The position numbers and the translations under genes were made by a program. From NCBI GenBank assembly GCA_900469965.1, contig UBZP01000003.1, positions 293-64,292 on the forward strand: a stretch of 64,000 nucleotides of DNA, read 5' to 3'. The notes below the pieces were generated by a model, which saw only the letters and a list, made by a program, of their open reading frames with translations, searched no databases and was not told the DNA's origin. Positions 44,323 to 60,414 of this stretch are shown piece by piece; positions within the stretch are counted from its first letter, which is position 1; the number at the start of each line of letters is the position of its first letter. Source of the DNA: Hyphomicrobiales bacterium. GTDB taxonomy: Bacteria > Pseudomonadota > Alphaproteobacteria > Rhizobiales > Rhizobiaceae.

Positions 44323-44338
44323 GCAAACCTTGGTTTGC
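44323..44338 (+). promoter_or_regulatory. 7-2-7 box in front of the single-domain receiver gene
   Basis: GCAAACC-TT-GGTTTGC has perfect 7-base arms. It matches the AAACC-TT-CGTTT core of the boxes at 47961, 60111 and 60315. A weak -10-like GATGAT starts 26 bases after it. It lies 149 bases before the chosen start of the receiver gene. It resembles the StyR/TodT box (ATAAACC-N2-GGTTTAT). Confidence 0.5.
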
Positions 44339-44486
44339 ATTGACGCACACATGCCCGCAGGCCGATGATCGGATGGACGTCAATGCGTGGGGATGCTCTT
44401 CTCTGGAAGAGCGATTCTTTTCCCCAATTCGTGCCTGCAATCGAGCCACAGTTCAAACGAGTAGAGAAGCCTGTCAGGCAGCTCTC

Positions 44487-44873
44487 ATGGAAATGCTTCC
44501 AATGCTGATTGCCATAGTCGACGATGATGAATCGGTCCGGGTATCCTTGCTCGATCTTCTGGAAGTCTCCGGATACTCTGTCGAGACGTTCGCGTCCGCG
44601 CCGGAATTTCTGAACTCGCCGCGGGTCACGGACATGCGATGCCTTCTCCTCGACATTTCAATGCCTGGAATGTCGGGCGTCGATCTCTATCGGGAACTGA
44701 CGCGCCAGGCGATCAGGATACCGGTGGTGTTCATGACCGGCCACGCCGAGGAAACCCTCGTCCGCGAAGCCAGGCGTGCCGGATCGTGCCTGTTCAAACC
44801 ATTCGCCGGCGGGGAGCTTCGGGCGGCCATCGAGAAGGCGGTCGGGACAGAGCGTGGCCAGGGCCCCGGGTGA
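44487..44873 (+). CDS. Single-domain response regulator (receiver only)
   Basis: A 128-residue CheY-like/FixJ-receiver-like protein with no output domain. Phosphorylation site D56 (LLLDISMPGMSG), acidic D13-D14, T84 and K104 (FKPF) are all present. It may act as a phosphate sink or relay for the kinases at 47961 and 61553. The start is uncertain: ATGs at 44487, 44493 and 44502 are in frame, and the first has AGG at a suitable distance. It is convergent with the FixJ-type regulator gene. Confidence 0.8.
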   Translation: MEMLPMLIAIVDDDESVRVSLLDLLEVSGYSVETFASAPEFLNSPRVTDMRCLLLDISMPGMSGVDLYRELTRQAIRIPVVFMTGHAEETLVREARRAGSCLFKPFAGGELRAAIEKAVGTERGQGPG

Positions 44874-44898
44874 CGCGCTGGCATCCGAAATCCCAAAA

Positions 44899-45537
44899 TC
44901 AGCTCTTCTGCAGCTTTTCGACCTTCCGGACCAGGTCCGCCAGCGATCGGCTCTGCATCTTTCGCATGACGCTCATGCGATGCAGCTTCACCGTCATTTC
45001 GCTGATCCCGAGCTGATAGGCGACCTGCTTGTTCATCAGCCCGGCGACGACGCCGACCATCACTTCGTGCTCCCGTGGCGTCAGCGTATCGGCCAGCGCA
45101 CGGATGTGATTGCGCTCGGCGTCGCGCTTGCGCCGCTCGGCATCGGTTCGGATCGCGTTGTCGACGGCGGCCAGCAGGTCGTGCGAGACGAACGGCTTGG
45201 TGAGGAAGTCGGAAGCACCGGCCTTCATCGCCTTGACGCTGGCTGGTACATCGGCGTGGGCCGTCAGGAAGATGACGGGGATCCGGCTCCCGATCGAGAT
45301 CAATTCGCTCTGCAGGTCGAGGCCGGTGCCTCCAGGCATGCGAAGGTCGACGACGACGCAGCCGGGCCCGGTCGTATCGGCCGTGGTCAGGAATTCGGTT
45401 CCGCTGGAGTAGGCGGACGCGCGCAGGTTGGTGACGAGGAAAAGATCGAGCAGGGCGTCCCGCACGTGCTTGTCGTCGTCGATGACGTGGACGACGGGCT
45501 CGCCAGAACGCTCGGTTCCCAGTTCCATGCTTTCCAT
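44899..45537 (-). CDS. FixJ/StyR-type response regulator
   Basis: A 212-residue regulator: a receiver with phosphorylation site D64 (VVVDLRMPGGTG) and K at LTKPF, and a LuxR/NarL-type helix-turn-helix (LTPREHEVMVGVVAGLMNKQVAYQLGISEMTVKLHR). The recognition helix SEMTVKLHR is almost the same as in the regulator at 47127. The ATG at 45537 follows GGAGGAACGG. A 7-2-7 box and a GATAGA hexamer lie upstream. The probable partner kinases are at 47961 and 61553. Confidence 0.9.
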   Translation of the reverse strand: MESMELGTERSGEPVVHVIDDDKHVRDALLDLFLVTNLRASAYSSGTEFLTTADTTGPGCVVVDLRMPGGTGLDLQSELISIGSRIPVIFLTAHADVPASVKAMKAGASDFLTKPFVSHDLLAAVDNAIRTDAERRKRDAERNHIRALADTLTPREHEVMVGVVAGLMNKQVAYQLGISEMTVKLHRMSVMRKMQSRSLADLVRKVEKLQKS

Positions 45538-45617
45538 GGCCGTTCCTCCACATCCTCCCCCGACCTCGCAGTCTTCGGGGATGTCGGAATCTATCACGGG
45601 CCCGGTGTGCCTGGCTG

Positions 45618-45633
45618 GTAGACGTTCGTTTAC
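45618..45633 (-). promoter_or_regulatory. 7-2-7 box upstream of the FixJ-type regulator gene
   Basis: On the minus strand the sequence is GTAAACG-AA-CGTCTAC, with six of seven arm positions paired. It lies 81-96 bases before the ATG at 45537. GATAGA (45591-45596), a -10-like hexamer, begins 21 bases after the box. Confidence 0.5.
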
Positions 45634-45697
45634 TTCACCTATCTCGTGGGACTGGAGAACTGGCTTTTCGATCGAGCGACCTTGCCGGAAGGGTGAG

Positions 45698-45719
45698 CCG
45701 GGCGGCAAGGGCCGCCCGG
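45698..45719. terminator. GC-rich hairpin after the NmrA-like gene
   Basis: CCGGGCGGC-AAGG-GCCGCCCGG has a perfect 9-bp stem, 38 bases downstream of the NmrA-like stop on the minus strand. There is no T tract. It would separate this unit from the next promoter at about 45600. Confidence 0.45.
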
Positions 45720-45756
45720 TGCGATTGGGAGGGAACGCCTGCCTGGTGACGATCGC

Positions 45757-46515
45757 TCAGGCCGCGGTCTGGTTGCGTTGCATGAACCAGGCCTTGGCGG
45801 TCAGCTTGCCGAGCTTGGCCGGGCCGAGCGGCACCAGCGACTGGTCGTCGACGAGCGAGCCGAAATAGCGGGCGTTCTTGTCCGCGACCACGGTGCGCGC
45901 ATCATGCGTGGCGGCCAGGTAGCCGGCCAGGAAATCGCTCATCGGCTTCTTCTCGGGGCCGGCGATCTCGATGGTCTGGTTGATCGGTGCCGAGACGGCG
46001 GCCTCCGCGACGAAACCCGCGACATCGTCGGCCGCAATCGGCTGGAACGCGCCGGGGGACGCATGAACCGTCTGGCCGGCGGTCGCGCTGTCGGCAATCC
46101 CGCCCATGAACTCCATGAACTGGGTCGAGCGGATGATCGTGTACGGTACGCCGCCCTTCTTCACGACGCTCTCCTGGATCACCTTGCCCGGGAAATAGCC
46201 GTTTTCGGGCGACCGCTCGATGCCGACGATCGAAAGCGCCACGTGATGGCGAACGCCGGCCGCCTTTTCCGCCGCGATCAGGTTGGACGTCGACTGCTCG
46301 AAGAAGGACAGGACCGCGGCCGGCTCGAAGGACGGCGAATTGGCCAGGTCCACGACGGCCTCGGCACCGGCGAGCGCCGCAGACAATCCCTCGCCCGTCA
46401 GCGTGTTGACGCCGGTGGCCGGCGAGGCCTGCACGACATCGTGCCCCTGGCCCCTCAGGAGTGCGGCAACCTTGGTTCCGATGAGGCCCGTGCCGCCGAT
46501 GACAACAATCTTCAT
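45757..46515 (-). CDS. NmrA-like NAD(P)-binding protein (atypical SDR)
   Basis: A 252-residue Rossmann-fold protein. The dinucleotide motif GGTGLIG is at residues 7-13. The segments SIVGIERSPENGYFPGKVIQE and YTIIRSTQFMEFM are typical of NmrA/NAD(P)H-binding redox-sensing or quinone-oxidoreductase-like proteins. AAGGAG seven bases before the ATG fixes the start. It follows the cupin gene by 94 bases and may share its transcript. The substrate is unknown. Confidence 0.85.
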   Translation of the reverse strand: MKIVVIGGTGLIGTKVAALLRGQGHDVVQASPATGVNTLTGEGLSAALAGAEAVVDLANSPSFEPAAVLSFFEQSTSNLIAAEKAAGVRHHVALSIVGIERSPENGYFPGKVIQESVVKKGGVPYTIIRSTQFMEFMGGIADSATAGQTVHASPGAFQPIAADDVAGFVAEAAVSAPINQTIEIAGPEKKPMSDFLAGYLAATHDARTVVADKNARYFGSLVDDQSLVPLGPAKLGKLTAKAWFMQRNQTAA

Positions 46516-46609
46516 GACCAAACTCCTTGTGTTGGGAGACCGGCAGGGTCATCCCGCATGCGTGGAAAGATGTGACGGCGGATGCCCACCGTCGCCCGTG
46601 TCGCCCTTC

Positions 46610-47020
46610 TCACTTGTCGAAGGTCGTCAGCTCCGTTTCGTCCGTGTCGACCACGAAGACCGCCAGCAGCTTTGCCGGCTCCGTCTCGCTGGCATTCGCG
46701 CTCACCCGGTGATGATCGCCGGGCACCTCGATCCAGTTCTCGCCGGTCTTGTAGACCTGCACGGCGCCGTCGTTGATCTGGCTCTTGATGCTGCCTTCGA
46801 TCACGGTCGCGCTGATGAATGCGCTCTTGGGGTGGGTGTGCGAGGGGTTGTGCCCGCCCGGGCCGTACTCGACCAGGACCCCGCGCACGCTCTTGCCGGG
46901 GACGTTCGGAAGCACGTGGTCGAACACCACCGTGACCTTGGCATTGTAGGGCTTGTCCGCAGCCGCCGCGGGGAGCGCGAACATCGCCGCGCTCAGCAAG
47001 CCGGTCGCCAGCATTCGCAT
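46610..47020 (-). CDS. Secreted cupin-domain protein
   Basis: A 136-residue small beta-barrel protein with a signal peptide (residues 1-21, cleavage after AAA). The cupin metal motif is visible: H61 and H63 (PSHTHP), E75 and H104. It should bind a metal in the periplasm; an enzymatic or binding role cannot be told. GGAGGAG precedes the ATG. A 7-2-7-type box and a TATAGC hexamer lie upstream, so it is a likely target of the FixJ-type regulators. Confidence 0.85.
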   Translation of the reverse strand: MRMLATGLLSAAMFALPAAAADKPYNAKVTVVFDHVLPNVPGKSVRGVLVEYGPGGHNPSHTHPKSAFISATVIEGSIKSQINDGAVQVYKTGENWIEVPGDHHRVSANASETEPAKLLAVFVVDTDETELTTFDK

Positions 47021-47087
47021 GATATCTCCTCCATGAGCTGATTGACTACGCCGCCAATGCTATACGGCGCCCGCCGCGCCGGCATAG

Positions 47088-47103
47088 GTATACGTAGGGT
47101 TAT
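47088..47103 (-). promoter_or_regulatory. 7-2-7-like box upstream of the cupin gene
   Basis: The minus strand reads ATAACCC-TA-CGTATAC. Its arms pair poorly, but an extended 17-base stretch agrees with the box at 60111 at 14 positions. It lies 68-83 bases before the cupin ATG, and TATAGC (47059-47064) begins 23 bases after it. Confidence 0.45.
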
Positions 47104-47126
47104 GCGGCCGGCCGCCGGCGCGGAGG

Positions 47127-47765
47127 TCACGGATCCGGCCGGTCGACCTCGTCGAAGATGCGCACGACATCGGCGACCGACCGCGCATCCAGCTTCTTCA
47201 TCATCCGCCCGCGATGCAGCTTGACCATGATCTCGCTGATCTTCATCTCGTGAGCGATCTGCTTGTTCATCAGGCCCCTGGACACATGTCCGAACACTTC
47301 CGCCTCGCGCGGGGTGAGCCGCTCCACCCGCGCCCTCATCTGGAGCGCCATCGTGGTCCGGGCGCGCAGTTCGGCGTTGCGTCCGAACGCCTGCTCCGTC
47401 GCCCTGATCAGGCTTTCCGAGCGAAACGGCTTCACCAGATAGTCGAATGCTCCCGCCTTCATGGCGGAAACGCTCGTCGCCACGCTGGCGTTTCCCGTGA
47501 TGAAGATGATCGGCAGTGGATATCCGAGCCCGGCCAGCTTCGCCTGGAGCTCGAGCCCGGTCATGCCCGGCATGCCGATGTCGAGGAGGACGCAGCCGGG
47601 CTGCGAGAGATCGGCATGCTCGAGGAAAGCGCCGGCGCTTTCGAACGCCGCCGCCCGCATGCCGACGGACTCGAAGAAGCCGAGGAGCGCGATCCGAAGG
47701 CCGGCGTCATCGTCGATGATATGAACCGTCGGGATCGGCGGCTGCGGCTCCGCGACCTCACCCAT
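47127..47765 (-). CDS. FixJ/StyR-type response regulator (second)
   Basis: A 212-residue regulator: a receiver with D62 (VLLDIGMPGMTG) and K in LVKPF, and a LuxR-type helix-turn-helix (LTPREAEVFGHVSRGLMNKQIAHEMKISEIMVKLHR). It has the same length and nearly the same recognition helix as the regulator at 44899, so both may bind the same boxes. GGAGGG precedes the ATG at 47765. It is 195 bases downstream of the histidine kinase gene and may be transcribed with it or from a promoter at the kinase's 3' end. Confidence 0.9.
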   Translation of the reverse strand: MGEVAEPQPPIPTVHIIDDDAGLRIALLGFFESVGMRAAAFESAGAFLEHADLSQPGCVLLDIGMPGMTGLELQAKLAGLGYPLPIIFITGNASVATSVSAMKAGAFDYLVKPFRSESLIRATEQAFGRNAELRARTTMALQMRARVERLTPREAEVFGHVSRGLMNKQIAHEMKISEIMVKLHRGRMMKKLDARSVADVVRIFDEVDRPDP

Positions 47766-47960
47766 TGGGCCCTCCCAACTCTGCATTAGGGTCATGATAG
47801 CACCAAACTGCCAGCAATGACGGACCTGCACCCGTCAGGAACGGAAAACGGCCGGGCTCCAAGGGTCACGCGATGAGATCGGGCGCACCGAGGCGGACTG
47901 TTGGTCGGCACCGGCTCCGGGTATCGCACGGAGCATAGCCGGCAACGGCGTCCGGAACCA

Positions 47961-47976
47961 TCAAACGAAGGTTTGG
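47961..47976 (-). promoter_or_regulatory. 7-2-7 box at the 3' end of the histidine kinase gene
   Basis: The minus strand reads CCAAACC-TT-CGTTTGA. Its 12-base core is identical to that of the box at 60111. It overlaps the kinase stop codon and lies 196 bases before the response regulator ATG. TATGCT (47932-47937), a good -10, begins 23 bases after it. Confidence 0.45.
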
Positions 47977-49289
47977 CCCGCAGCGCCGGCCGCAGGTTCG
48001 GGCGCAATCGGGAGCGTGACCAGGAAGGTCGCGCCGACGCCCGGCGCATTTTCGACGCTGATCGTTCCTTCGTGATCGGCCACGATGGACCGGCATATGG
48101 CCAGGCCGATCCCGATGCCGTCCGTCTTCGTCGAGAAGAACCCGTCGAAGATCCGCTCCAGGTGTTCGGCCGGGATGCCTCCGCCCGTGTCGCGAACGCT
48201 CAGCAGGATCGCACCGCGCGCATCACACGACGTCTGCACGGTGATCTCACGCCGCTCGGCCCCGGCAATCGAGATCGCCTGGATGGCGTTCAGCAACAGG
48301 TTCACGACCACCTGCTGAAGCTGGATGCGATCACCCAGGACGAAGGGAAGGTCGCCGTCGAGCCGGGTCGAGACGGCGACGGCATGGTTGCGGGCTTCGG
48401 TCGAGACGAAGGCGGTCGCCTCCTCGACGACCGCATTGATGTCCACCGGTGCTCGCAACGGATCGCGCTTGACGGTCATGTCCTGCACCCGGCTGATCAC
48501 CTGGTTGGCGCGGTGCGCGTTTTCCATCACCCGCGTCATCAGGGCCTTGGCCTTGTCGAGGTTCGGTTCCTCCCGCTCCAGCCATCGCGTCGCGGTGTCG
48601 GCATCGGTCGCGATCACCGAAAGGGGCTGGCGCACCTCGTGGGCGATCGTGGCGACGAGCTCTCCGAGCGCGGAGACGCGCGACGCATGGGCGAAATCCG
48701 CCTGCACCCTTCGAAGCTGCTGTTCGGTTCTCCGCTGCGCGGTGACGTCGACCATCATGATCAGCGCAAGATCGGCGCAGTCGGGCGTCTGGGGAAAGGT
48801 GGCGAAAAGCAGGACGTCGAGAAACTGGCCGTCGAAGGCGCGCACCTTCATCTCCTCGATGTGATTGCGCGCCCCGGCCAATCGCGCCCGGACGATCCGC
48901 ACGGCCGTGTCCGGGCTGGCGGCGAACAGGTACCCCACCGGTCCGAGGAGCGTTTCCCGGTCGGCCGCACGCAGCAGGCGGGCGGCGCTGTCATTGGCCC
49001 CGGTCACGACCACCGACTCGCTGGTCAGCCTCAGGACCTCGGAGGTGTCGGTGCGGGCCTCGATGGGTTCGCCGCCAGACGACTGCGCCCCTTCGAAGGC
49101 CCTCGTCATGATCCGGGCATCGACCTGCCAGAGCGGAAGCGGCACGTTGTTGATGAGGTTGCGGTAGCGTGCCTCGCTCGCCTGCACGTCCCGATGGATC
49201 TCGGGCGCCACCCAGGCAGCGGGATTTCTGTCGGCGGTCTCCGCATCCAGCGGACGGGCACGCTCGACGATGCTGGCAATTTGATTCAT
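47961..49289 (-). CDS. PAS-domain sensor histidine kinase (FixL/StyS-like output)
   Basis: A 442-residue soluble kinase: a PAS-like region at about 34-185, the phospho-acceptor H217 (IAHEVRQPLSVI), then N, G1 (VRDTGGGIP) and G2 (GIGIGLAICRSIV) boxes. No membrane segments or haem-binding FixL motif are seen, so the signal is unknown. The start at 49289 is chosen because family sequence begins there and because a promoter (TTGACT-N17-TATTAT) containing a TetR-type operator lies just upstream. The likely partners are the FixJ-type regulators at 47127 and 44899. Confidence 0.88.
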   Translation of the reverse strand: MNQIASIVERARPLDAETADRNPAAWVAPEIHRDVQASEARYRNLINNVPLPLWQVDARIMTRAFEGAQSSGGEPIEARTDTSEVLRLTSESVVVTGANDSAARLLRAADRETLLGPVGYLFAASPDTAVRIVRARLAGARNHIEEMKVRAFDGQFLDVLLFATFPQTPDCADLALIMMVDVTAQRRTEQQLRRVQADFAHASRVSALGELVATIAHEVRQPLSVIATDADTATRWLEREEPNLDKAKALMTRVMENAHRANQVISRVQDMTVKRDPLRAPVDINAVVEEATAFVSTEARNHAVAVSTRLDGDLPFVLGDRIQLQQVVVNLLLNAIQAISIAGAERREITVQTSCDARGAILLSVRDTGGGIPAEHLERIFDGFFSTKTDGIGIGLAICRSIVADHEGTISVENAPGVGATFLVTLPIAPEPAAGAAGQTFV

Positions 49290-49356
49290 CGCGTCTCTCG
49301 ATCTGTTCGGCGGGGGTGTCCAGCCGCCCGCCCGCTCGGGGCATATCCCTCCACGC

Positions 49357-49385
49357 ATAATACGGTACGTTACCGTACCAGTCAA
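49357..49385 (-). promoter_or_regulatory. Histidine kinase promoter with TetR-type operator in its spacer
   Basis: The minus strand has -35 TTGACT (49380-49385), a 17-base spacer and -10 TATTAT (49357-49362). The spacer is filled by GGTAC-N6-GTACC (49364-49379); in another register the site reads TACGGTA-N3-TACCGTA. A related operator lies in the TetR gene's own promoter. Repression by occlusion is inferred. Confidence 0.65.
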
Positions 49386-49451
49386 ACGCCCGATCGTTCC
49401 CGCCCCTGGACGGTCACGCGGCAACCGTTCCACCGGCCGCCGTCGAGATCG

Positions 49452-50081
49452 TCAAGGATCGCTGCGAACGCTGCCGAGGACACCATGCAGGAAGGTCTCG
49501 ACCGCTTGGCGGACCGCGGTCCCGATGTCGCCCTCGCCCAGAGCCTTGCCGCCGCCCAGCAATGCGACGAAATGGATCTGTCCCCGGACGAGCGCCAGAA
49601 ACTGCTCCGCAGCCGGACGGGGACGGCTGATCGTCGCCTGCGGTGCGCGCCGGTTCTGTTCTTCGAAATGGTCCGCCAGCAGCTGTGCGACGCGGTTCGT
49701 CGCGACATCGAGAAACCGCTGCCCCACCTGCGGCAAGTGGGGCGCTTCCGCGCTGACGCTGCGGAAAAGCGCAAGGCCGTCCGGCGAAAGCACCGTGCGC
49801 AGGTAGCTCGTCCCGAACCGGGTCAGCGTCTCCGGCAGATCGCGCTCAGGCTCCAGCGCCAGTCCCTCCATCGTGCGATCGGCAACGGAGGTCACGACCG
49901 CGGAGAACAGCTCCTCCTTGCTCGCGAAATATTTGTAGAGCGTCCGCTTGGATCCGCCGACGATCGCGATCACGTCGTCCATCGAGGTCCGGGAAAAACC
50001 CTTCTCGAAGAACACCGTTGCCGCGGCTGCAACGATCACGTTCTTTCTGGCTTCCTGTTTCGGAGAGGTTTCATGGTCCAT
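49452..50081 (-). CDS. TetR-family regulator (CecR-like)
   Basis: A 209-residue TetR protein. The helix-turn-helix is at about residues 12-58 (NVIVAAAATVFFEKGFSRTSMDDVIAIVGGSKRTLYKYFASKEELF). The C-terminal part is of the AefR/CecR type. In E. coli, CecR is encoded with ybhGFSR; here the gene follows ybhR by 126 bases on the same strand. The ATG at 50081 is preferred because the operator and promoter at 50119-50150 lie upstream of it, though no clear Shine-Dalgarno is seen. Confidence 0.88.
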   Translation of the reverse strand: MDHETSPKQEARKNVIVAAAATVFFEKGFSRTSMDDVIAIVGGSKRTLYKYFASKEELFSAVVTSVADRTMEGLALEPERDLPETLTRFGTSYLRTVLSPDGLALFRSVSAEAPHLPQVGQRFLDVATNRVAQLLADHFEEQNRRAPQATISRPRPAAEQFLALVRGQIHFVALLGGGKALGEGDIGTAVRQAVETFLHGVLGSVRSDP

Positions 50082-50118
50082 GGCGGATCGCAAGGGGGCA
50101 CTTTCTGATGGGACTGAT

Positions 50119-50150
50119 GGTACTCTACGGTACCGCCTCGCGCGCTTCAA
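50119..50150 (-). promoter_or_regulatory. TetR gene promoter with overlapping operator
   Basis: The minus strand has -35 TTGAAG (50145-50150), a 17-base spacer and -10 TAGAGT (50122-50127). GGTAC-N6-GTACC (50119-50134) covers the -10. An extended 18-base stretch matches the operator at 49364 at 14 positions. Autoregulation is inferred. Confidence 0.6.
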
Positions 50151-50207
50151 TCGGGCAAGCCCGTCCGATCGTCGGCCGTCAACCGCCGAAGCCCGAAAGG
50201 TCCGACC

Positions 50208-51320
50208 TCACTCGAGGCGGCGTCGGAAGAGCCAGGAGGCTGCCCCCAGCGTCACCGTCGCGATCACGAGCAGCGGTGCCGTCTGGCGCAGAACCTCGCT
50301 GATCGGAATGTCCTTCAGGAAGATACCCTTCACGATGACGAGGAAATAGCGCAGCGGGTTGATGGCGGTGACCGGCTGCAGCCAGGACGGCATGTTCTCG
50401 ATCGGCGTCGCGAAACCGGACAGGAGCGTCGCCGGCACCAGGAAGAGAAAGGCGCCGAGGATCGCCTGCTGCTGCGTCATCGACAGCGCCGAGATGAAGA
50501 GCCCCACCCCGGCGATGGAAGCGAGATAGAAGAGCGAGCTCGCATAGAGCAGGAACAGGGAACCGCGCAGCGGAACCGCGAAGACGAACACCGCGGCCAG
50601 CACGTAGACGGTCATGTGGAAGAGCCCGATCAGGATCGGCGGGGTGAGCTTGCCGATCAGGATCTCGTGCGTGCGCAGCGGCGACACCATCAGCTGGTCG
50701 AAGGTGCCGAGCTCGCGTTCGCGGGCAATGGACAGGGCGGTGACGATCAGTCCGATCAGGAGCGCGATGTTCGCGATCAGGTTCGGCACCATGAACCATT
50801 GATAGATCAGGTTGGGGTTGAACCAGTAGCGCGGCACGGTCTCGATCGCGGTCGCGACCTTTCGCGCACCCGACGGCGTCTCGGCGGCCAGCCCGAGCAC
50901 GATCTGGTTGATGTAGCCGGCAACGATCTGGGCCGCATTGGACCGGCGCCCGTCCAAGAGGATCTGCAGGTCCGCGGGCTTGCCGGCCTCGATGTTTCGG
51001 GAAAATTCGGTGCCGACCGTGATCGCGGCGGTCACCTTCTGGCGGTCGATCGCCTCGCGCGCCGCCTGCGGATTGTCCGTCAGCATGACATGCCGGAACC
51101 GCGGCGAGCCGGCGATGCGGGCGGTCAGCTCTTCGCCCCAGTGCCCCGCATCGCGGTTGAGCAGCATGACGTCGACATTGCGCACTTCGAGCGTCGCCGC
51201 ATAGGAGAAGACGACGAGCTGGACGATCGGCGGCCCGATCAGGATGGTCCGGCCTCTGGGGTCGCGCAGCACCGTCAGCAGCTCTTTCAGCACGAGAGCG
51301 ATCAGTCTCGACCACCACAT
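50208..51320 (-). CDS. ybhR: ABC-2 type permease (YbhR-like)
   Basis: A 370-residue exporter permease: one N-terminal helix, a large periplasmic domain (about 50-170) and a cluster of five C-terminal helices. The family motif ARERELGTFDQLMVSPLRTHEILIGK is present. The ATG at 51320 begins 1 base after the stop of its paralogue. It works with YbhS-, YbhF- and YbhG-like products encoded upstream. In E. coli the complex exports drugs and cations. Confidence 0.88.
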   Translation of the reverse strand: MWWSRLIALVLKELLTVLRDPRGRTILIGPPIVQLVVFSYAATLEVRNVDVMLLNRDAGHWGEELTARIAGSPRFRHVMLTDNPQAAREAIDRQKVTAAITVGTEFSRNIEAGKPADLQILLDGRRSNAAQIVAGYINQIVLGLAAETPSGARKVATAIETVPRYWFNPNLIYQWFMVPNLIANIALLIGLIVTALSIARERELGTFDQLMVSPLRTHEILIGKLTPPILIGLFHMTVYVLAAVFVFAVPLRGSLFLLYASSLFYLASIAGVGLFISALSMTQQQAILGAFLFLVPATLLSGFATPIENMPSWLQPVTAINPLRYFLVIVKGIFLKDIPISEVLRQTAPLLVIATVTLGAASWLFRRRLE

Positions 51321-51321
51321 C

Positions 51322-52463
51322 TCAGGCAATCCTTTTGCGCGTGCTGCGGGCAGCAAGGGTGAAGAACACGGCGCCGATCAGGAACATGGCGCCGATGGAA
51401 CGCAGGAACATCGGCCAGATGTCCCCGGCGAGAAACACGCTCTGGAGGCAGGGGATCAGGTAGCGCGTCGGCACCACGAAGGTGATCCACTGGATGACTT
51501 CCGGCATCGAATTGATCTCGAACAGAAATCCCGACAACAGGAAGGACGGCAGAAAGGCCGTGATCAGCGCCATCTGCGAGGCGAGGAACTGGTTTTTGGT
51601 CGCAGCCGAGATCAGCAGCCCCTGCCCCAGCGCCGGAACCAGAAAGACGGCGGACAGCAGGTAGAGCGCCACGACCGAGCCGCGGAACGGGACGTCGAAC
51701 ACGAAGACGGCGAGGACCACGCAGAGCGTCATCGATGCGAGCGCGAGGATGAAGTACGGCAGGACCTTGCCGGCGAGAAGCTCGATCGCGGTGACGGGCG
51801 TCGCCATGATCGCCTCCATGGTGCCGCGCTCCCACTCGCGGGCGACGACGAGCGAGGTCAGCAGCGTTCCGACGAGCGTCATGATGATCGCGATCGAGCC
51901 GGGAACGAGGAAGGAGCGGCTCGTCAGTTCCGGATTGAACCAGAAGCGCTGCTCGACCCGTATCGGCGGGCCCATCGCGGCGGTCTCCGACTTGCGGAGC
52001 TGCTGCCAGGTGGCCACCGCGCCCTGCACGTAGTTCTGGACGAAATTGGCGGTGTTGGGATCCGAGCCGTCGACGATGACCTGGACCTGCGGGTGGGTTC
52101 CGGCGGTGTATCTTTCCATGAAGTCCGCCGGGATGACGACGATGCCGCGAACGCGGGCGAGAACCAGATCCTCCTCGAATTCGCGCCGGTCCCGTCCCGT
52201 GACCACGGAGAAGTAGCGCGATGCCTGGAAGCTCGCGGCAAGATCGCTCGTGACCGGCGTCACATCCTCGATGACGACGCCCACGCGCGTATCCGTCGTG
52301 TCCAGCGAGATGCCGTACCCGAACAGGAAGAGCAGGATCAGCGGCAGCACGAAGGCGATCAGGATGCTGCTCGGATCGCGGGCGACCTGCAGGCTTTCCT
52401 TGCGGACGAGAGCCAGAAACCGCAGGCCGCGGCCGCCCTCGCGCGATCTATCCTTGGGGTCGG

Positions 52464-52467
<4 letters not shown>
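51322..52467 (-). CDS. ybhS: ABC-2 type permease (YbhS-like)
   Basis: A 381-residue permease of the same family as its neighbour. It has a first helix (SSILIAFVLPLILLFLFGYGI), a periplasmic domain and five C-terminal helices, with VAREWERGTMEAIMATPVTAIELLAGK as the ABC-2 motif. ATGA overlap with the ATPase gene shows coupling. It probably forms a heterodimer with the YbhR-like protein. Confidence 0.88.
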
Positions 52468-54202
<1,735 letters not shown>

Positions 54203-54206
<4 letters not shown>

Positions 54207-55213
54207 TTCTCTGCCGCCTCTTGATCCGGAAGGTGCAGCGTCACCGGCATCCCCTGGCGAAGGTCCTGGCCGGGAGCGGCGATGACGACGCGAATGCGAT
54301 AGACGAGATCGGTCCGCAGCTCGGGCGTTTCGACGGACTTCGGCGTGAACTCCGCGACCGGCGAAATGAAGCCGATCGTTCCTTCGTAGCGTTTCGCGGG
54401 GTTCGTGTCGGAGGCGATCATCACCCTCATGCCCGGATAGATCCGCCCGAGGTCGACCTCACCGATGTAGCTCCGCACCCAGACGGGCGCTGTGAGCGAC
54501 AGGACGTAGACGGGATCCGACGACGACACGATCGCACCGGGCTCCTTGATCCGGGACAGGATCACGCCGTCGTTCGGCGCGCGCAGGTCCGTGTCGGACA
54601 GCGAAGTGCGCGCGGTCAGCAGCGCCGCCTCGGCGGCCTTCACCTGCGCAGCCGCCGTGGCGATGTCTTCCGCACGGCTTCCCTCCTCGAGAAAGGCAAG
54701 CGCCTCCTTCGTCATGTTCGAGCGTGCTGCAGCCATGGCCCTCGCCGCGGTCGCCTCGTCCACGCCGGCTTCGGAGACCGTTCCTCGCGACCGCAGCAGT
54801 TGCGCCCGGTCATAGGCAAGCCGGGCTTTCTCGAGGTCGGCGACGCTGGCCTCGTGCGTGGCTCTCGCCTGGGCGATCTCGGTCTGCCGCGGGCCGGTGA
54901 CCAGCTTCTCGTGCGTCGCACGCAGCGCCGCAACGTTCGCCTCCGCGGAAATCACCGCGTGTTCGTAGGTATCCCTGTCGAGGCGGGCGAGAAGGTCTCC
55001 GCGCTTGACCACGTCGCCTTCGTCGACCAGGGCCTCCATGATGCGGCCGTTCACGCGGAAGGCGAGCGAGACCTGGCGGATGTCGATATTGCCGTAGAGC
55101 ACCATCTCGTTGTCTGTGTCACGCGCAATACCCAAGGCGGCGAGAACATCGTATTTCCAGCCGACGACGCCCAGGGCGGCCAACACGATCACGATAGGGA
55201 TTGCCTTGTTCAT
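54203..55213 (-). CDS. ybhG: HlyD-family membrane fusion protein (YbhG-like)
   Basis: A 336-residue periplasmic adaptor with an N-terminal membrane anchor (residues 4-22). Lipoyl half motifs are at [26 protein letters not shown] and [21 protein letters not shown], with an intervening helical hairpin. The ATG at 55213 has GGAG six bases before; an upstream in-frame ATG is too close to it. It is the first gene of the ybhGFSR-like operon. Confidence 0.88.
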
Positions 55214-55572
55214 TTCCATCTCCTGCTCGGGAACCCGCTGAAACAAACGGAGTTGACGGGCTGGCTGCTGCCAGTCCGGTCATCCAGATCCTGGATTTCG
55301 AGAACCCGCTGCGCGCTATCACGCAACGCCACTTTCCTTGGACTCCGGCACACGGGGCCCAATGCACACTAAGCAACCGAACGGGCCCCTTCCGCTAGGC
55401 CAACGTTGGTATGCGTTGACGCTGCTGGCGGCACGGAAGACGGATGGGCGGTCGGCAACGGAGCGAATCTCCGGAGCGACAAGGACATGTGGCGCAACGG
55501 GACCGCACACGGGCGGGAGGTCCGAAGCGCATTGCCTTCTACCGCCCGCGCGCAGCAATCCGAGGAGACTTC
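55214..55572. other. Divergent intergenic region between ybhG-like and EF-hand genes
   Basis: 359 bases with no convincing gene. It should hold two promoters. It contains CCAACGTTGG, a short palindrome near 55403, but no copy of the GGTAC-N6-GTACC operator, so direct control of the ybh-like operon by the adjacent TetR protein is not supported here. Confidence 0.4.
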
Positions 55573-56004
55573 ATGAAAATCGACAGTTCGATCTTTAACC
55601 TGTTTGCCCAGCGGCCGCGCAAGGCACCGGTCGCCGAGACCTCGCCCGGGGCCACGACGCCGCCGCAGCCGCGGCCACCGTCGCTTCGATCCGATGCGCA
55701 GCGCGTCGACGACTTCCACGCGAGAATGGCGAAGCAGCAGCTGGATTGGGCGGATGCGAACAAGGACGGCAGCCTCACGAAAGCCGAGTACATGGACGGC
55801 CAGAAGCGGCTCGCCGAAGCCAATGACCAGACGTTCGACAGCGAGGCCAGCAGCGAGCGCTGGGCAAAACTCGATCCTGCCGGCAAAGGCGCGCTCGACG
55901 CGAACGCGCTTCGGGAGGGGCTCGAGACGCTTCTGCCGGTCAAGGTCGGCCATCTGGACGGCAACGTCTTCCAGCGCCTTCTCGCGAGACGGACCTCGGA
56001 CTGA
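55573..56004 (+). CDS. EF-hand protein
   Basis: A 143-residue protein with one canonical calcium-binding loop (D61, N63, D65, S67, E72). A second, degenerate loop starts at D101 (DPAGKGALDANA) and lacks the final Glu. There is no signal peptide; a Pro-rich linker spans residues 24-38. GAGGAG precedes the ATG. It is a single gene. The role is unknown, with calcium sensing or buffering inferred. Confidence 0.75.
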   Translation: MKIDSSIFNLFAQRPRKAPVAETSPGATTPPQPRPPSLRSDAQRVDDFHARMAKQQLDWADANKDGSLTKAEYMDGQKRLAEANDQTFDSEASSERWAKLDPAGKGALDANALREGLETLLPVKVGHLDGNVFQRLLARRTSD

Positions 56005-56039
56005 TCGGATCTGAAACCATCGGATGATTTCACGAAAAA

Positions 56040-56074
56040 GCGCCGCAGACCGGACGACAGCCGGCCTGCGGCGC
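56040..56074 (-). terminator. Rho-independent terminator of the emrAB-like operon
   Basis: On the minus strand a GC-rich stem (GCGCCGCAG paired with its complement, plus an inner CCGG pair) is followed by TTTTT. It lies 25 bases after the emrB-like stop. On the plus strand the same hairpin may also end the EF-hand transcript. Confidence 0.8.
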
Positions 56075-56098
56075 GGGCAGTTGCGGGCCGCGCGCTGA

Positions 56099-57718
56099 TC
56101 AGTGCGCGTCGCCGCCGGACATCGGGCCGCTCGGCTTCTTCAGCAGAAGCGTTGCGAGCAGGGCGACGACGAGGCCGGCGCCGAGCAGGAAGAACGCATC
56201 GCTGAACGCCATGACGTTGGCCTGCTTGCGGACGCTGGCGGCGATGGCGACGACGGCCTTGTGGGCGGCCGTGGCCTGATCGCTGACGCCGTGGTTCATG
56301 AAGTAGGCGGTCAGCTTGGCAATCCTGGTTCGCGTCGCTTCCTCGAAGAGGCTGACCGAGTTTGACAGGATGTTGGAATGGAACTGCTCCCGTTTCGTCA
56401 GAAACGTCTGGAGCGATGCGATTCCGACCGCGCCGCCAAGGTTGCGCATCATGTTGAAGAGGGCGGATGCGGAGCCGGCGTTCTCCCGTTCGATCCCCGC
56501 GGTGGCGACGACCGAGAGAGGGGCGAAGACAAGGGCCTGCCCGACGGCGCGGATGACGTTCGGCCAGAACAGCTGGTCGGCCGCATAGTCGCCGGTCATG
56601 TAGACGTTCATGAAATTCGAGGCGGCAAAGAGGGCGAAGCCGACGGCGATCAGCAGCCGCACATCGACGAGCTTCATCACCCGGGGAACGAGCGGGATGA
56701 GAAGGAGCTGCGGGATGCCGGTCCACGCCAGCACCATCCCGATCTGTTCGGAATTGTAGCCCTGGATGCGCGCCAGGTAGATGGGGAGCACGAAGGCCGA
56801 TCCGTAGAGCGCAATCCCGAGCATCGTGTTCGCCAGGATCCCGAAGGCGAAGTTGCGGCGGGCGAACAGCCTCAGGTTCAGGAGCGGGTTTGCGGTTCTG
56901 AGCTCTATGATCAGGAAGAGCGTCAGGGAGACCGCGGCGACGATCGAGAGCTGGACGATCAGCTCGGATCCGAACCAGTCCTCCTTGTTGCCCTCCTCCA
57001 GCACGGTCTGAAGGGTGGCGAGGCCGACCGCCAGAGTGACGATCCCGGCCCAGTCGCCCTTGGCCAGCATGCCCAGCTGCATCGGCGCCTTGTCGAGCGA
57101 GGCCCAGAGCAGCCCGACCATCAGAAGGCCCGGGACCAGGTTGACGTAGAAGATGAATTCCCAGCCGTAGTTCTCCGTCAGGTACCCGCCGATGGTCGGC
57201 CCGATGGCGGGGGCGAAGGTCGCCGAAAGCGCGAAGAGCGCCAGCCCGACCGGTTGCTTCGGCTTCGGCAGCAGCGTGATGATGATGGTGAAGGCCATCG
57301 GGATGAGGACGCCGCCGGCAAAGCCCTGGATGGCCCTGAGCACGATCATCTGCTCCAGGTTCGCCGCGAACGCGCAGGCCACCGAGAAGACGAGAAACAG
57401 GATGGCGTTGGTCAGGAGATAGCGGCGCAGCGAAAAGACCTGGGCCAGCCAGCCGCTGAGGGGAATGACCACGATTTCGGCGACGAGATAGGAGGTCGAG
57501 ATCCATCCGCCGTCGTCCTTGCCGGCGCCGATCGCCCCCTGGATGTCGGCGAGCGAGGCATTGACGATCTGGATGTTGAGGACCGCCATGAAGGCCCCCA
57601 GGGTGGAGCCGATCACCGCGCACCACATCCGCAGGGCGCTCATGTCCTTTGCCGAAGCCGGCGCTTCGGTGCCCTGCGGCTGCCGTCCGTTGCCGGCCTC
57701 AAGCGTGCGTGTCGCCAT
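56099..57718 (-). CDS. emrB: DHA2-family multidrug efflux transporter (EmrB-like)
   Basis: A 539-residue MFS protein with about 14 membrane helices. Motifs are LNIQIVNASLADIQGAIG in helix 1, GWLAQVFSLRRYLL in the first loop and GFAGGVLIPMAFTII with motif C-like GPTIGGYLTENYGWEF. It pairs with the EmrA-like adaptor 81 bases upstream to move hydrophobic toxins across the envelope. A terminator follows it. Confidence 0.9.
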   Translation of the reverse strand: MATRTLEAGNGRQPQGTEAPASAKDMSALRMWCAVIGSTLGAFMAVLNIQIVNASLADIQGAIGAGKDDGGWISTSYLVAEIVVIPLSGWLAQVFSLRRYLLTNAILFLVFSVACAFAANLEQMIVLRAIQGFAGGVLIPMAFTIIITLLPKPKQPVGLALFALSATFAPAIGPTIGGYLTENYGWEFIFYVNLVPGLLMVGLLWASLDKAPMQLGMLAKGDWAGIVTLAVGLATLQTVLEEGNKEDWFGSELIVQLSIVAAVSLTLFLIIELRTANPLLNLRLFARRNFAFGILANTMLGIALYGSAFVLPIYLARIQGYNSEQIGMVLAWTGIPQLLLIPLVPRVMKLVDVRLLIAVGFALFAASNFMNVYMTGDYAADQLFWPNVIRAVGQALVFAPLSVVATAGIERENAGSASALFNMMRNLGGAVGIASLQTFLTKREQFHSNILSNSVSLFEEATRTRIAKLTAYFMNHGVSDQATAAHKAVVAIAASVRKQANVMAFSDAFFLLGAGLVVALLATLLLKKPSGPMSGGDAH

Positions 57719-57799
57719 CGTTCTGCTTCCGCGCGAGCGGAACCTTCGTGCTGTGTTGTCGGGGATCGGGAATGGGGAGAGGATGTCCGCCGGATGCCG

Positions 57800-58963
57800 T
57801 CACTTGTCGTGCGACAGCCGGGCGATCCTGGTGTCGATCTTCGGCACGACGGACATTCCGGAGCGGAGCTGGGCGGCGCGCGCCTCGTCGTCGATGATGA
57901 TCTTCACCGGAATGCGCTGGACGATCTTGGTGAAATTGCCCGTCGCGTTGTCGGGCGGAAGCAGTGAGAATTCCAGGCCGCTCGCGGGCGCGACGCTGTC
58001 CACATGCCCCTTCACTTCGACCCCGGGAAACCCGTCGACCTCGATCTCCACGGGCTGGCCCGGGCGAACGTAGGTCAGCTGCGTCTCCTTGAAATTCGCG
58101 ACGACATAGACCGAATGCAGCGGCACGACCGCCATCAGCTGCGTGCCGGCGGTGACATACTGCCCCACGCGGATCGAGCGCGCGCCGAGCGTGCCGTCGA
58201 CGGCCGCGACGATGTTCGTATAGGAGAGGTTCAGTTCGGCCTGCTCGACGGCCGCGGCCGCCCGCTCCCGTTGCGCCACCGCATGGTCGCGCTGGCTCTT
58301 GAGGACCGGTACCCGGTCATGCGCGGCGATCAGCGCGGCACGGTCCCGCTGAACCGCCGCGGTCGCCTGCTCGAGCAGGGACCGGCTCTGCTCGGCACGC
58401 GACTGCGTGCCCGCCCCGGTATTGCTCAGCCGCGTGTCCCGCTTGGCCTCGGATGTCGCAAAGACCAGCGAGGCGTTCGAAGCGTCGACCGATGCTTCCG
58501 CCTGGCCGATGACCGACTTCTGCAGTTCGATCTGGGCGTCGATGTTGGTGATCGCCGCCTCCGCCGCCTTCAGCTCGGCCCGCGCCTGGTCCAGCGCCAC
58601 CTGGAAGTCGCGATCGTCGATGCGTGCAAGCACCTGCCCCGCCTTGACGGCGTCATTGTCATCGACCAGCACCTCCTTGACGTAGCCGGCGATCTTGGGG
58701 GCAACCGTCGTGTAGTCCGCCTTGACGTAGGCATTGTCGGTGGATTCGATGAACCGGCCGACCGTCCAGTACCGGTTGGCGAAGTGGGCGCCGTAGCCCG
58801 CGGCGGCGAACAGAACCAGCGCGACCACGCCTTTCTTGACGACGGACTTCCGCCGGGGGGCAACGGCCGGTGCAGGCGATGCGGGCTCGGCGGATACCGA
58901 GGCGGGATCGGGTCCGTCGCCGGCGGGCTCGACCTTGAAGGCTTCCTTGCGTGACAGTTCCAT
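57800..58963 (-). CDS. emrA: EmrA-like membrane fusion protein
   Basis: A 387-residue HlyD-family adaptor with a single membrane anchor at about residues 44-63 after a 40-residue cytoplasmic tail. Lipoyl half motifs (VAPKIAGYVKEVLVDDNDAVKAGQVLARIDDRDF and VDGTLGARSIRVGQYV) flank a long coiled-coil hairpin rich in Ala, Gln and Arg. GGAG lies 9 bases before the ATG. It is the first gene of the emrAB-like operon. Confidence 0.88.
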   Translation of the reverse strand: MELSRKEAFKVEPAGDGPDPASVSAEPASPAPAVAPRRKSVVKKGVVALVLFAAAGYGAHFANRYWTVGRFIESTDNAYVKADYTTVAPKIAGYVKEVLVDDNDAVKAGQVLARIDDRDFQVALDQARAELKAAEAAITNIDAQIELQKSVIGQAEASVDASNASLVFATSEAKRDTRLSNTGAGTQSRAEQSRSLLEQATAAVQRDRAALIAAHDRVPVLKSQRDHAVAQRERAAAAVEQAELNLSYTNIVAAVDGTLGARSIRVGQYVTAGTQLMAVVPLHSVYVVANFKETQLTYVRPGQPVEIEVDGFPGVEVKGHVDSVAPASGLEFSLLPPDNATGNFTKIVQRIPVKIIIDDEARAAQLRSGMSVVPKIDTRIARLSHDK

Positions 58964-59203
58964 CACCACGATCTCCAGCGACCATCGCTCGCGATCGTCC
59001 TTGCGTCCGAACGCGCCTCGTGTCGCAACCACAGACAGTTCACTCGCTTCGAGGATGATCGGTCCGCACGGACAATCGGCGAGCGGCGCCTCTGCGCGAA
59101 GACTTGGTCATAGGCAGATGGCGCGTGTCAGATTTGGAATCTTCCCGGTGCGCGGGACAGATATACAAAGGTTGGGAGATGCGGTGGCGCAGGTCGATGC
59201 GCC

Positions 59204-59392
59204 CTAGCGGGCACGCGATGGTCCGCGGAAGATGTTCATCTGCAGCTCGTGTCTCGAGGCAAAGCGCCCGAGGATCCGGATCAGGCGCTCCTCCTCGGCC
59301 TGACATATGCCCGCCTGCCTGCAATATTCCGCAATATCCCACAAATGCTCCGCTTCGGTCGTCTCGGGCAGTCGGGTATCGCGGCAAGTCAT
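59204..59392 (-). CDS. Small hypothetical protein (62 aa, start uncertain)
   Basis: From the ATG at 59392 (AAAGGCG six bases before) the gene encodes 62 charged, helical residues (EAEHLWDIAEYCRQAGICQAEEERLIRILGRFASRHELQMN). The frame is open to 59500, so a longer form is possible. I recall similar short proteins in Rhizobiales but no function. It lies upstream of the emrAB-like operon on the same strand, 240 bases away. Confidence 0.5.
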   Translation of the reverse strand: MTCRDTRLPETTEAEHLWDIAEYCRQAGICQAEEERLIRILGRFASRHELQMNIFRGPSRAR

Positions 59393-59526
59393 CTTGCGCC
59401 TTTCGTGCACAGAGGCGCCGCTGCCGCCTTGCATGGACATGGATCGGACCCCACGCATGAATTTCGATGGGAGATCTGGAAGCCTATCGGCTTCGCGCAA
59501 GACGGATAACTATACGGTCGTTCTAT

Positions 59527-59546
59527 CCTCCGCAGCGATGCGGAGG
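59527..59546. terminator. Hairpin downstream of the small membrane protein gene
   Basis: CCTCCGCA-GCGA-TGCGGAGG has a perfect 8-bp stem and a GNRA loop (GCGA) on the plus strand. It lies 67 bases after the stop of the 59613 gene. There is no T tract in the minus direction, so the termination role is tentative. Confidence 0.35.
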
Positions 59547-59612
59547 AAAATCGGTCGACCGGCCGGCCGCCCCACGGCGATCGGCCGTTCTAAAGATCGC
59601 TGCAGGCGCGGC

Positions 59613-60053
59613 CTAGGCCCGGAGGGTCGCGGATTCCGTGCGGCCGGCCGCACCGGTCACCCGCCTGGCCGCCCAGAGGGTGGCGATGATCCCGAAGATC
59701 GCGGGCAGGCTTACGGCCGGGAAGTCGCGAATGATCACCGACGACGAGCAGATGCCGACCGCCACTTCCCACAGATGGAAGGTGGCATGCGCAATCAACC
59801 AGAGGGTCGCGCCCGCCCAAAGCTCCAGCCGGCGCTGCGGCTTCCAGAGCCCGATGGCGAAGGCAGCCGCAATGAACCCCTGGATGATGCCGATGTCGCG
59901 CACGAAATGCTGGTTGAACATGCCGGTGTCGGTGACTCCGGGCACGAAATAGTACCAGCCCTCGGGGTCATAGAGCATGTGGAGGCAGAGCCAGGCCGCA
60001 AGCAACGTGTTGAAACCGACCATTCCATAGACAGTGTACCTTGAGAGCTGCAT
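59613..60053 (-). CDS. Four-helix integral membrane protein of unknown function (146 aa)
   Basis: A 146-residue protein with about four membrane helices (near 10-28, 54-70, 80-102 and 112-130). Conserved-looking residues lie in the loop PEGWYYFVPGVTDTGMFNQHFVRDIG and in helix 3 (H89, H93). AGGAGG precedes the ATG, a very strong ribosome binding site. A 7-2-7 box and a GATAAC hexamer lie upstream. It is divergent from the MBL-fold gene, which also has a box, so both are likely co-regulated. I do not recognise a named family. Confidence 0.75.
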   Translation of the reverse strand: MQLSRYTVYGMVGFNTLLAAWLCLHMLYDPEGWYYFVPGVTDTGMFNQHFVRDIGIIQGFIAAAFAIGLWKPQRRLELWAGATLWLIAHATFHLWEVAVGICSSSVIIRDFPAVSLPAIFGIIATLWAARRVTGAAGRTESATLRA

Positions 60054-60110
60054 TTGAACCTCCTGCAAGAATGACCGCGGACGTTATCACCGCGGACCGG
60101 TGGCTGCGCC

Positions 60111-60126
60111 CCAAACGAAGGTTTAT
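60111..60126 (-). promoter_or_regulatory. 7-2-7 box upstream of the small membrane protein gene
   Basis: The minus strand reads ATAAACC-TT-CGTTTGG, the closest match to the StyR/TodT box. It is 58-73 bases before the ATG at 60053. GATAAC (60083-60088) begins 22 bases after it. Confidence 0.55.
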
Positions 60127-60314
60127 GCGGGCTCCCGGAACGGGTTGGCGACCCTCTCGGGTTGCACAGGTCGACCAGGTTTTCGGTTACCCGGGCCGCC
60201 GCCAGCCACGACTTCTTCCGGGGGCATAGGGAGGACAGCAGGGCGGCCTCACCTTGCCGCGTCAGACCCGCTCGACGAAATGACCATCAAGCGGCGACGG
60301 CTGCGGAAATCAAG

Positions 60315-60330
60315 CCCAACGACCGTTTGG
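60315..60330 (+). promoter_or_regulatory. 7-2-7 box upstream of the MBL-fold hydrolase gene
   Basis: CCCAACG-AC-CGTTTGG has arms pairing at six of seven positions. It is 85-100 bases before the ATG at 60415. CATAGA (60353-60358) begins 22 bases after it. Its right arm is identical to that of the box at 60111. Confidence 0.5.
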
Positions 60331-60414
60331 GTTCAACGCCTGTGGGCTTCGACATAGACTCCGCGGAGTGGCCAGGGACCACACGTCATCAATACCGCAA
60401 AACAGGAGTTCGAC

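What the first reader, a model, noticed from the sequence alone, without database searches (positions are those of the whole stretch)
44323..60330. A shared 16-bp 7-2-7 promoter box defines a possible FixJ/StyR-type regulon
Six sites in 16 kb share the form of two 7-base arms around 2 bases, with core AAACC-TT-CGTTT: 44323, 45618, 47088, 47961, 60111 and 60315. The sites at 47961 and 60111 have an identical 12-base core. Each lies upstream of, and is oriented toward, a gene: single receiver, FixJ-type regulator, secreted cupin, second FixJ-type regulator, small membrane protein and MBL-fold hydrolase. In five of the six a -10-like hexamer (GATAGA, TATAGC, TATGCT, GATAAC, CATAGA) starts 21-23 bases after the box, as for activator-dependent promoters. 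The box resembles the known StyR/TodT box. Both regulators have nearly the same recognition helix (SExxVKLHR). A weaker seventh candidate is at 59161-59176, upstream of the emrAB-like operon.
Basis: partly seen in the sequence, partly recalled or inferred. Interest (0 to 1): 0.75.

Follow-up and report, generated by a model that had tools for sequence, protein, structure and literature searches.

The report
StyR-type operator box across Rhizobium island
A 16-base palindrome-like DNA site precedes eight genes or operons of one 16-kb Rhizobium gene island, is conserved in three related genomes, and most likely lets the island's own two-component regulators switch on its pumps, enzymes and regulators together.

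Summary
All six sites exist, and the "weaker seventh" (59161) is genuine. An eighth (55399-55414), upstream of an HlyD/ABC exporter operon, was missed. A weight matrix from seven sites puts exactly these eight at the top of the 63,985 window positions. In three related genomes with the island all eight recur; 110 of 128 box columns are invariant against 388 of 1074 flanking columns. The box is nearly confined to the island: AAACCTTCGTWTR gives 2 hits in each of 3 island genomes, all in the island, and 4 in 58 other family genomes. The likely binder is RR1 and/or RR2: both match StyR better than FixJ among solved structures. Independently, the matrix is enriched in 31 loci around 37-56% identical regulators in other bacteria: 13 hits of 18 bits or more against a scrambled mean of 0.5, though 19 of 31 loci have none of 16 bits or more. 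The regulon looks local and self-regulating, not genome-wide. It works like StyR/TodT but is not a strict member: kinases, a base-contact residue and targets differ. Binding and expression are untested.

The parts
44323..44338 (+). Box 1, GCAAACCTTGGTTTGC, upstream of the single-domain receiver gene
   Evidence: perfect palindrome; 15 of 16 columns invariant in 4 genomes
45618..45633 (-). Box 2, upstream of RR1; -10-like GATAGA after 22 bases
   Evidence: 13 of 16 columns invariant
47088..47103 (-). Box 3, upstream of the cupin (cupin-NmrA unit); weak in the window, AACCTACGTATAC in relatives; -10-like TATAGC after 23 bases
47961..47976 (-). Box 4, overlaps the 3' end and stop codon of HK1, upstream of RR2; -10-like TATGCT after 23 bases
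55399..55414 (-).
   Evidence: not used to train the matrix
59161..59176 (-). Box 7, upstream of the EmrA/EmrB-like operon (HlyD2-MFS); no good -10
   Evidence: 11 of 16 columns invariant
60111..60126 (-). Box 5, upstream of the 151-aa membrane protein; -10-like GATAAC after 22 bases
60315..60330 (+). Box 6, upstream of the MBL-fold hydrolase; -10-like CATAGA after 22 bases
44487..44873 (+). Single-domain receiver (REC), with the usual DDD, D, T, K residues (roles recalled)
   Evidence: PF00072 only; sequence printed
44899..45537 (-). RR1, receiver plus GerE/LuxR helix-turn-helix, recognition helix SEMTVKLHRMSVMRK
45757..46515 (-). NmrA-like NAD(P)-binding protein
   Evidence: NAD_binding_10; NmrA below its cutoff
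46610..47020 (-). Cupin with a signal-peptide-like start (judged by eye)
   Evidence: PF07883
47127..47765 (-). RR2, receiver plus GerE helix-turn-helix, recognition helix SEIMVKLHRGRMMKK
47961..49289 (-). HK1, histidine kinase (HisKA, HATPase_c)
50208..55246 (-). ABC-2 exporter genes: HlyD adaptor, fused ATPase, two permeases
56099..59032 (-). EmrA/EmrB-like efflux genes (HlyD2 and DHA2-type MFS)
59613..60068 (-). 151-aa protein (membrane by eye) without Pfam or NCBIfam match at E 0.001
60415..61380 (+). MBL-fold hydrolase, distantly like AidB-type lactonases (125 bits, cutoff 360)
61553..64000 (-). HK2, MASE1-PAS3-HisKA-HATPase kinase, runs off the window end

Best explanation
The box is the operator of the island's own StyR-like response regulators. 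One or both kinases (HK1, HK2) phosphorylate RR1 and/or RR2; the phosphorylated dimer binds the two arms of the 7-2-7 box, centred about 42 bases upstream of the transcription start, and recruits RNA polymerase to promoters with a -10-like element. That switches on eight units together: two efflux systems, the MBL hydrolase, the cupin-NmrA pair, the small membrane protein, both regulators (positive feedback) and a single-domain receiver. The receiver probably acts as a feedback brake on a kinase, as FixT does on FixL. In the relatives HK1 directly follows the ABC exporter genes, so there it is probably co-transcribed from box 8. Shown: the boxes, their conservation, their spacing to -10-like hexamers at five promoters, their near-confinement to the island, and enrichment of the box around this regulator type elsewhere. 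Inferred: which regulator binds, activation rather than repression, the brake, and an export or detoxification role. The signal is unknown.
For: The eight top matrix hits of the window are exactly the eight promoters; seven were training sites, the eighth was not. All are found at orthologous places in G054, G057 and G064, with 110 of 128 box columns invariant against 388 of 1074 flanking columns. The TATAAT match peaks at spacers of 22-25 bases, in line with StyR's high-affinity site about -40 (PMC2442086 abstract). Of 19 window genes sought in the relatives' fetched regions, RR1 and RR2 are the only DNA-binding proteins with orthologues beside the boxes; LacI had no hit and TetR one partial hit in G064. 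Best solved match of both is StyR (E 1.3e-50 and 8.8e-47) ahead of FixJ (4.3e-39 and 7e-35); the published StyR/TodT/TutB/TmoT consensus is ATAAACN4GTTTAT (PMC5874301 passage). In 31 loci fetched only by regulator similarity (37-56% identity) the matrix gives 24, 13 and 5 hits at 16, 18 and 20 bits; scrambled matrices give means of 2.1, 0.5 and 0.05 and maxima of 12, 6 and 1 in 60 runs. 46 loci around weaker or partial kin give 1, 0 and 0. Boxes precede a single-domain receiver gene in Hansschlegelia, a Rhodospirillales MAG and G045 too.
Against: No binding, phosphotransfer or expression data. StyR's H179 is M in RR1 and G in RR2. 19 of the 31 kin loci have no hit of 16 bits or more, and of the 12 that have, L083-L086 are close to each other, as are L094 and L095. 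21 of 36 hits of 14 bits or more listed in 13 loci fall inside ORFs of a crude caller that over-calls GC-rich DNA, so their intergenic position is not shown. The own-genome RR2 paralogue on C6 with the same recognition helix has only hits of 16.0 bits (inside an ORF) and 15.2 bits. Five exact cores lie elsewhere in the genome, one scoring 19.2 bits. The receiver-box link outside the island is weak on a simple pattern: 6 of 32 against 1.7 expected. HK2 shows no box within the window.
Confidence: 0.82

Rival explanations
1. The boxes bind a different transcription factor encoded elsewhere in the genome (for example another NarL/FixJ-type regulator), and RR1/RR2 are merely targets of it.
For: Regulator genes are themselves preceded by boxes; no binding data; G000 carries at least 41 matches to the RR2 query at E 0.001 or less (50 of 75 candidates scored), including one on C6 with the identical recognition helix.
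Against: The box is nearly confined to genomes and positions with the RR1/RR2 island and is enriched around related regulators in other bacteria; the window's TetR and LacI genes are not found beside the boxes in the relatives' fetched regions.
Confidence: 0.12
2. The box is a repressor operator: RR1/RR2 bound near -42 blocks polymerase, or represses some promoters and activates others.
For: StyR itself represses from some of its sites (PMC2442086 abstract and passages); the REC and HlyD2 promoters depart from the common spacing.
Against: At five of eight promoters the box sits 22-23 bases before a -10-like hexamer, where a class II activator would (class II recalled).
Confidence: 0.1
3. Chance resemblance plus coding or general conservation between close relatives.
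For: The four genomes are related; box 4 lies in coding DNA; beside boxes 3, 6, 7 and 8 other 16-column windows are as conserved as the box (7 of 105, 5 of 101, 4 of 116 and 1 of 101), some of them over -10 elements or coding starts.
Against: 86% against 36% invariant columns, leave-one-out ranks, out-of-sample eighth site, distant-locus enrichment.
Confidence: 0.02

Closest known systems
StyR of the Pseudomonas StyS/StyR styrene system (also TodT, TmoT, TutB)
   Same: Closest solved relative of both regulators (44 and 43% pairwise identity); operator core AAAC-N4-GTTT and position near -40 agree with the published consensus and with site STY2
   Different: Kinases are FixL/AtoS-like with one kinase core each, whereas TodS has several sensing and kinase modules (recalled); H179 not kept; targets are efflux, MBL, cupin and regulators, with no aromatic catabolic operon among the boxed genes; two regulators may share one box
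FixL/FixJ/FixT of rhizobia and Caulobacter
   Same: FixJ-type regulators, FixL-like kinases and a single-domain receiver in the gene set; FixT is a receiver that represses FixLJ signalling by inhibiting FixL autophosphorylation (PMC7078487 abstract and passages)
   Different: FixJ has E where StyR and these regulators have K; in the tree FixJ groups with L106, L108 and L109 (89/75, 96/76 and 98/87 for the nested forks), two of which have E there and none of which shows a box; the REC here has one cysteine, not the Caulobacter four-cysteine motif
Other StyR-like regulator loci in alphaproteobacteria (Hansschlegelia, a Rhodospirillales MAG, Bradyrhizobium, other Rhizobiaceae)
   Same: Same type of box near a VKLHR/VKIHR regulator, in some upstream of a single-domain receiver
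   Different: The right arm there often reads GTATGA or GTATAG rather than GTTTG; cluster contents differ

Membership tests
StyR/TodT response regulator family | Receiver plus NarL/FixJ helix-turn-helix | tested here: met
   PF00072 and PF00196 in RR1 and RR2
StyR/TodT response regulator family | Closer to StyR than to FixJ | tested here: met
   by score; identity differs little (44 and 43% against 41 and 39%), and StyR's place in the tree is unresolved
StyR/TodT response regulator family | DNA-contact residues K175, V176, H179 | tested here: not met
   K kept, L for V, M (RR1) or G (RR2) for H; residues named in PMC5874301
StyR/TodT response regulator family | Operator ATAAACN4GTTTAT | tested here: inconclusive
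   Core AAAC-N4-GTTT exact at 3 of 8 window boxes, relaxed at the other five; outer bases mostly differ
StyR/TodT response regulator family | Multi-domain TodS/StyS-type kinase partner (recalled) | tested here: not met
   HK1 and HK2 (HK2 cut at its N-terminal side by the window end) show one kinase core each and no receiver
StyR/TodT response regulator family | Phosphorylation-dependent binding and activation | not testable with these tools
   needs protein
FixLJ-FixT | FixJ equivalog score | tested here: not met
   RR1 196.7 and RR2 163.6 bits against cutoff 255
FixLJ-FixT | FixL equivalog score for the kinases | tested here: not met
   HK1 193.6 and HK2 (incomplete) 295.6 against cutoff 850
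FixLJ-FixT | Single receiver gene under control of the same regulator | tested here: inconclusive
   Box 1 upstream of REC in 4 of 4 genomes; control not shown

The most novel reading that the evidence does not exclude
A self-contained operator island in which eight transcription units (regulators, a FixT-like receiver, pumps and enzymes) share one StyR-type box, and more generally an alphaproteobacterial module in which StyR-like regulators (VKLHR/VKIHR helix) carry local boxes and drive a neighbouring single-domain receiver as feedback brake, with box variants that follow the regulator subtype.
Probability: 0.45. Interest if true: 0.6.

Novelty: new variant of a known kind. Interest (0 to 1): 0.5.

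Why it matters
FixJ/StyR-like regulators are numerous in this family (3 to 50 matches at E 0.001 in each of 61 genomes, receiver-only matches included), and to my knowledge few have a known operator. Here sequence gives a precise box, eight promoters and two candidate binders, so such regulators become directly testable. It also suggests that the StyR operator code is used by alphaproteobacterial regulators outside aromatic degradation, and that single-domain receivers near them may be feedback brakes. I saw no description of this box or island in the listings of my searches or in passages of three papers; the library holds open-licence papers only.

Tried and rejected
One search used a pattern whose spacing I had set wrongly (12 matches against 13.4 expected, none of them a reported site); it says nothing and was replaced. 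A sequence-only covariance model (R1) carried too little information: at E 10 or less it matched in 2 of 8 genomes, with 150 candidates scored per genome; its three matches are island boxes. De novo motif search upstream of 33 and 32 non-island receiver genes locked on to coding sequence and did not recover the box. A simple pattern found it in 6 of 32 such upstream regions against 1.7 expected; my cut at the regulator's stop codon removed the Hansschlegelia box there. A strict distant-type pattern, TAAACCTNCGTATGA, was found in 0 of 289 class-level genomes; too strict to weigh. The first HTH pattern was wrong and was replaced. In one search my length and motif filter lost several regulators, among them the RR2-like ones of L081-L086, so the tree holds 55 rows and not every fetched regulator. 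The alignment for box 3 puts gaps in the box (boxes in register in 1 of 4 rows, 13 invariant columns; 12 without gaps).

The genome-wide regulon idea was rejected: AAACSNNSGTTT has 8 places in the genome, 3 in the island, and the backward control also gives 8. The five others score 12.6, 13.9, 16.8, 17.8 and 19.2 bits. Three of them (L004, L005, L008) and the off-island place L185 were checked in 3-kb stretches: no regulator helix of this type, and five ORFs of L004, L005 and L008 showed nothing related (HEPN_AbiU2, DUF2971, three without match). L006 and L007 were not looked at further. The window's TetR or LacI as binder was rejected.
Full report
What was checked. Their arms range from a perfect palindrome (44323) to 3 of 7 (47088). 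The core AAACSNNSGTTT is rare: 3 in the window against 0.07 expected, and 8 with one mismatch (5 of them reported sites, 3 outside the island) against 1.94. In the whole 5.34-Mb genome the exact core has 8 places, 3 of them in this island; the backward control also has 8, so there is no genome-wide excess, only a cluster.

Conservation. The island is present in three relatives: G054 (matching Rhizobium rhizolycopersici DBTS2), G064 (matching Rhizobium sp. GN54), both of the window's genus, and G057 (another genus of the family). That the window is a Rhizobium is inferred from these names. Orthologous island proteins align at 62.8 to 92.5% identity; among 19 window genes sought in the fetched regions, LacI had no hit and TetR one partial hit in G064. 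All seven boxes recur at the orthologous promoters in all three. With the eighth, 110 of 128 box columns are invariant against 388 of 1074 flanking columns, some flanks being -10 elements or coding. Sites 3 and 7 fit the consensus better in the relatives than in the window. In the relatives cupin-NmrA is divergent from REC with two boxes between them; in the window the pair, with its box, lies between RR1 and RR2.

An eighth site. Scanning with the seven-site matrix picked out 55399-55414, not used in training; its 16 bases are identical in four genomes, between the EF-hand-like gene and the HlyD1-ABC exporter genes. The eight best-scoring places of the whole window are exactly these eight promoters (14.8 to 22.9 bits); the next is 13.5 bits at 38839. 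Leave-one-gene-out ranks of the seven are 3 to 18 of 63,985.

Geometry. Between box end and -10-like hexamer there are 22-23 bases at RR1, cupin, RR2, mem151 and MBL; the mean TATAAT match over 8 boxes and 4 genomes peaks at spacers of 22-25, apart from an isolated high value at spacer 1. This puts the box centre near -42, as for StyR's high-affinity site, about -40 (PMC2442086, abstract and passages seen). Site 47961 covers the last codons and stop of HK1 (Q-T-F-V-stop), so part of its conservation could be coding; the third codon positions there are also kept, but for one in G064.

Confinement. AACCTWNGTWTR: 5 places in G000, 4 of them in the island; 6 and 5 in G054; 6 and 5 in G064; 10 and 6 in G057; four congeners without the island (G061, G062, G063, G065) have 2, 0, 2 and 1; the backward control has 1 to 6 per genome. 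AAACCTTCGTWTR in 61 family genomes: 2 in each of the three island genomes sampled, all in the island, and 1 in each of 4 of the other 58; the backward control has 19, none in the three island genomes. These patterns derive from the sites, so they measure confinement and not discovery.

Who binds. RR1 and RR2 are receiver plus LuxR-type HTH proteins. Their best solved relative is StyR, ahead of FixJ; pairwise identity is 44 and 43% to StyR, 41 and 39% to FixJ. PMC5874301 (passages) names K175, V176 and H179 as StyR's putative DNA contacts and ATAAACN4GTTTAT as the operator. K is kept in both, V becomes L, H becomes M or G. In a 55-row tree FixJ groups with L106, L108 and L109, none of which shows a box of 15.5 bits; two of these have E in place of K, L106 has K. 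StyR's own place is unresolved, and the tree lacks several fetched regulators.

Independent test. Loci were fetched from named genomes only by similarity to RR2. In the first 31 beyond the island orthologues (L081-L111, 37-56% identity) the matrix gives 24 hits of 16 bits or more, 13 of 18 or more and 5 of 20 or more, in 12, 9 and 5 loci; 60 column-scrambled matrices average 2.1, 0.5 and 0.05 hits, maxima 12, 6 and 1. First-order resampled sequences give 1.6, 0.0 and 0.0. The remaining 46 loci, weaker or partial kin and largely Alteromonas, give 1, 0 and 0 against 3.4, 1.0 and 0.2; 21 other family regions give 3, 1 and 0 against 0.6, 0.0 and 0.0. Against this: 19 of the 31 loci have no hit of 16 bits or more; L083-L086, and L094 with L095, are not independent; and 21 of 36 listed hits of 14 bits or more in 13 loci fall inside ORFs of a crude caller.

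The receiver. An ORF matching a receiver model built from four receivers occurs in 21 of the 31 kin loci, often just after the regulator; some, such as L100, are probably parts of regulators. A box lies upstream of it in the window island, Hansschlegelia (L098; box overlapping the regulator's stop), a Rhodospirillales MAG (L099; start codon uncertain) and G045 (L043). FixT is a precedent: a single receiver that represses FixLJ signalling by inhibiting FixL autophosphorylation (PMC7078487, abstract and passages). That the receiver here is a brake is inference. Outside the island the link is weak on a simple pattern (6 of 32 against 1.7).

What the island does. Two efflux systems (YbhG/RbbA-like ABC exporter, EmrAB-like), an MBL hydrolase distantly like AidB lactonases (125 bits, cutoff 360), a cupin, an NmrA-like protein and an uncharacterised small protein. 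Export or detoxification of a small molecule is the likely theme (inference); the inducer is unknown.

Verdict. It is a local, apparently autoregulated StyR-type operon set, new in members and layout, of a known general kind. Binding remains to be shown.

Noticed in passing
window 49452-50105: A TetR (AefR-type) gene sits between the ABC exporter genes and HK1 in the window; in the three relatives HK1 follows the exporter genes directly, so this looks like a later insertion.
   Followed up: partly
window 45757-47103: The cupin-NmrA pair with its promoter box has moved: it is divergent from REC in the relatives but between RR1 and RR2 here.
   Followed up: partly
G054 C23 about 52776-62275 (L030-L031): R. 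rhizolycopersici has a second, paralogous cluster (MBL 77%, cupin 66%, NmrA 59%, HK2-like kinase, regulator) with no box of 15.5 bits or more.
   Followed up: partly
L046:6939-6954 (own genome, contig C15): A 19.9-bit box, CCAAACCTCCGTATGG, about 3 kb from another StyR-like regulator of the same genome.
   Followed up: no
window 55567-56004: EF-hand-like protein with only sub-cutoff matches to lanmodulin and a calcium-binding family, found in the island of all three relatives at 63-67% identity.
   Followed up: no
window 59204-59500: 98-aa ORF without family match at E 0.001, aligned at 67-77% identity in the three relatives.
   Followed up: no
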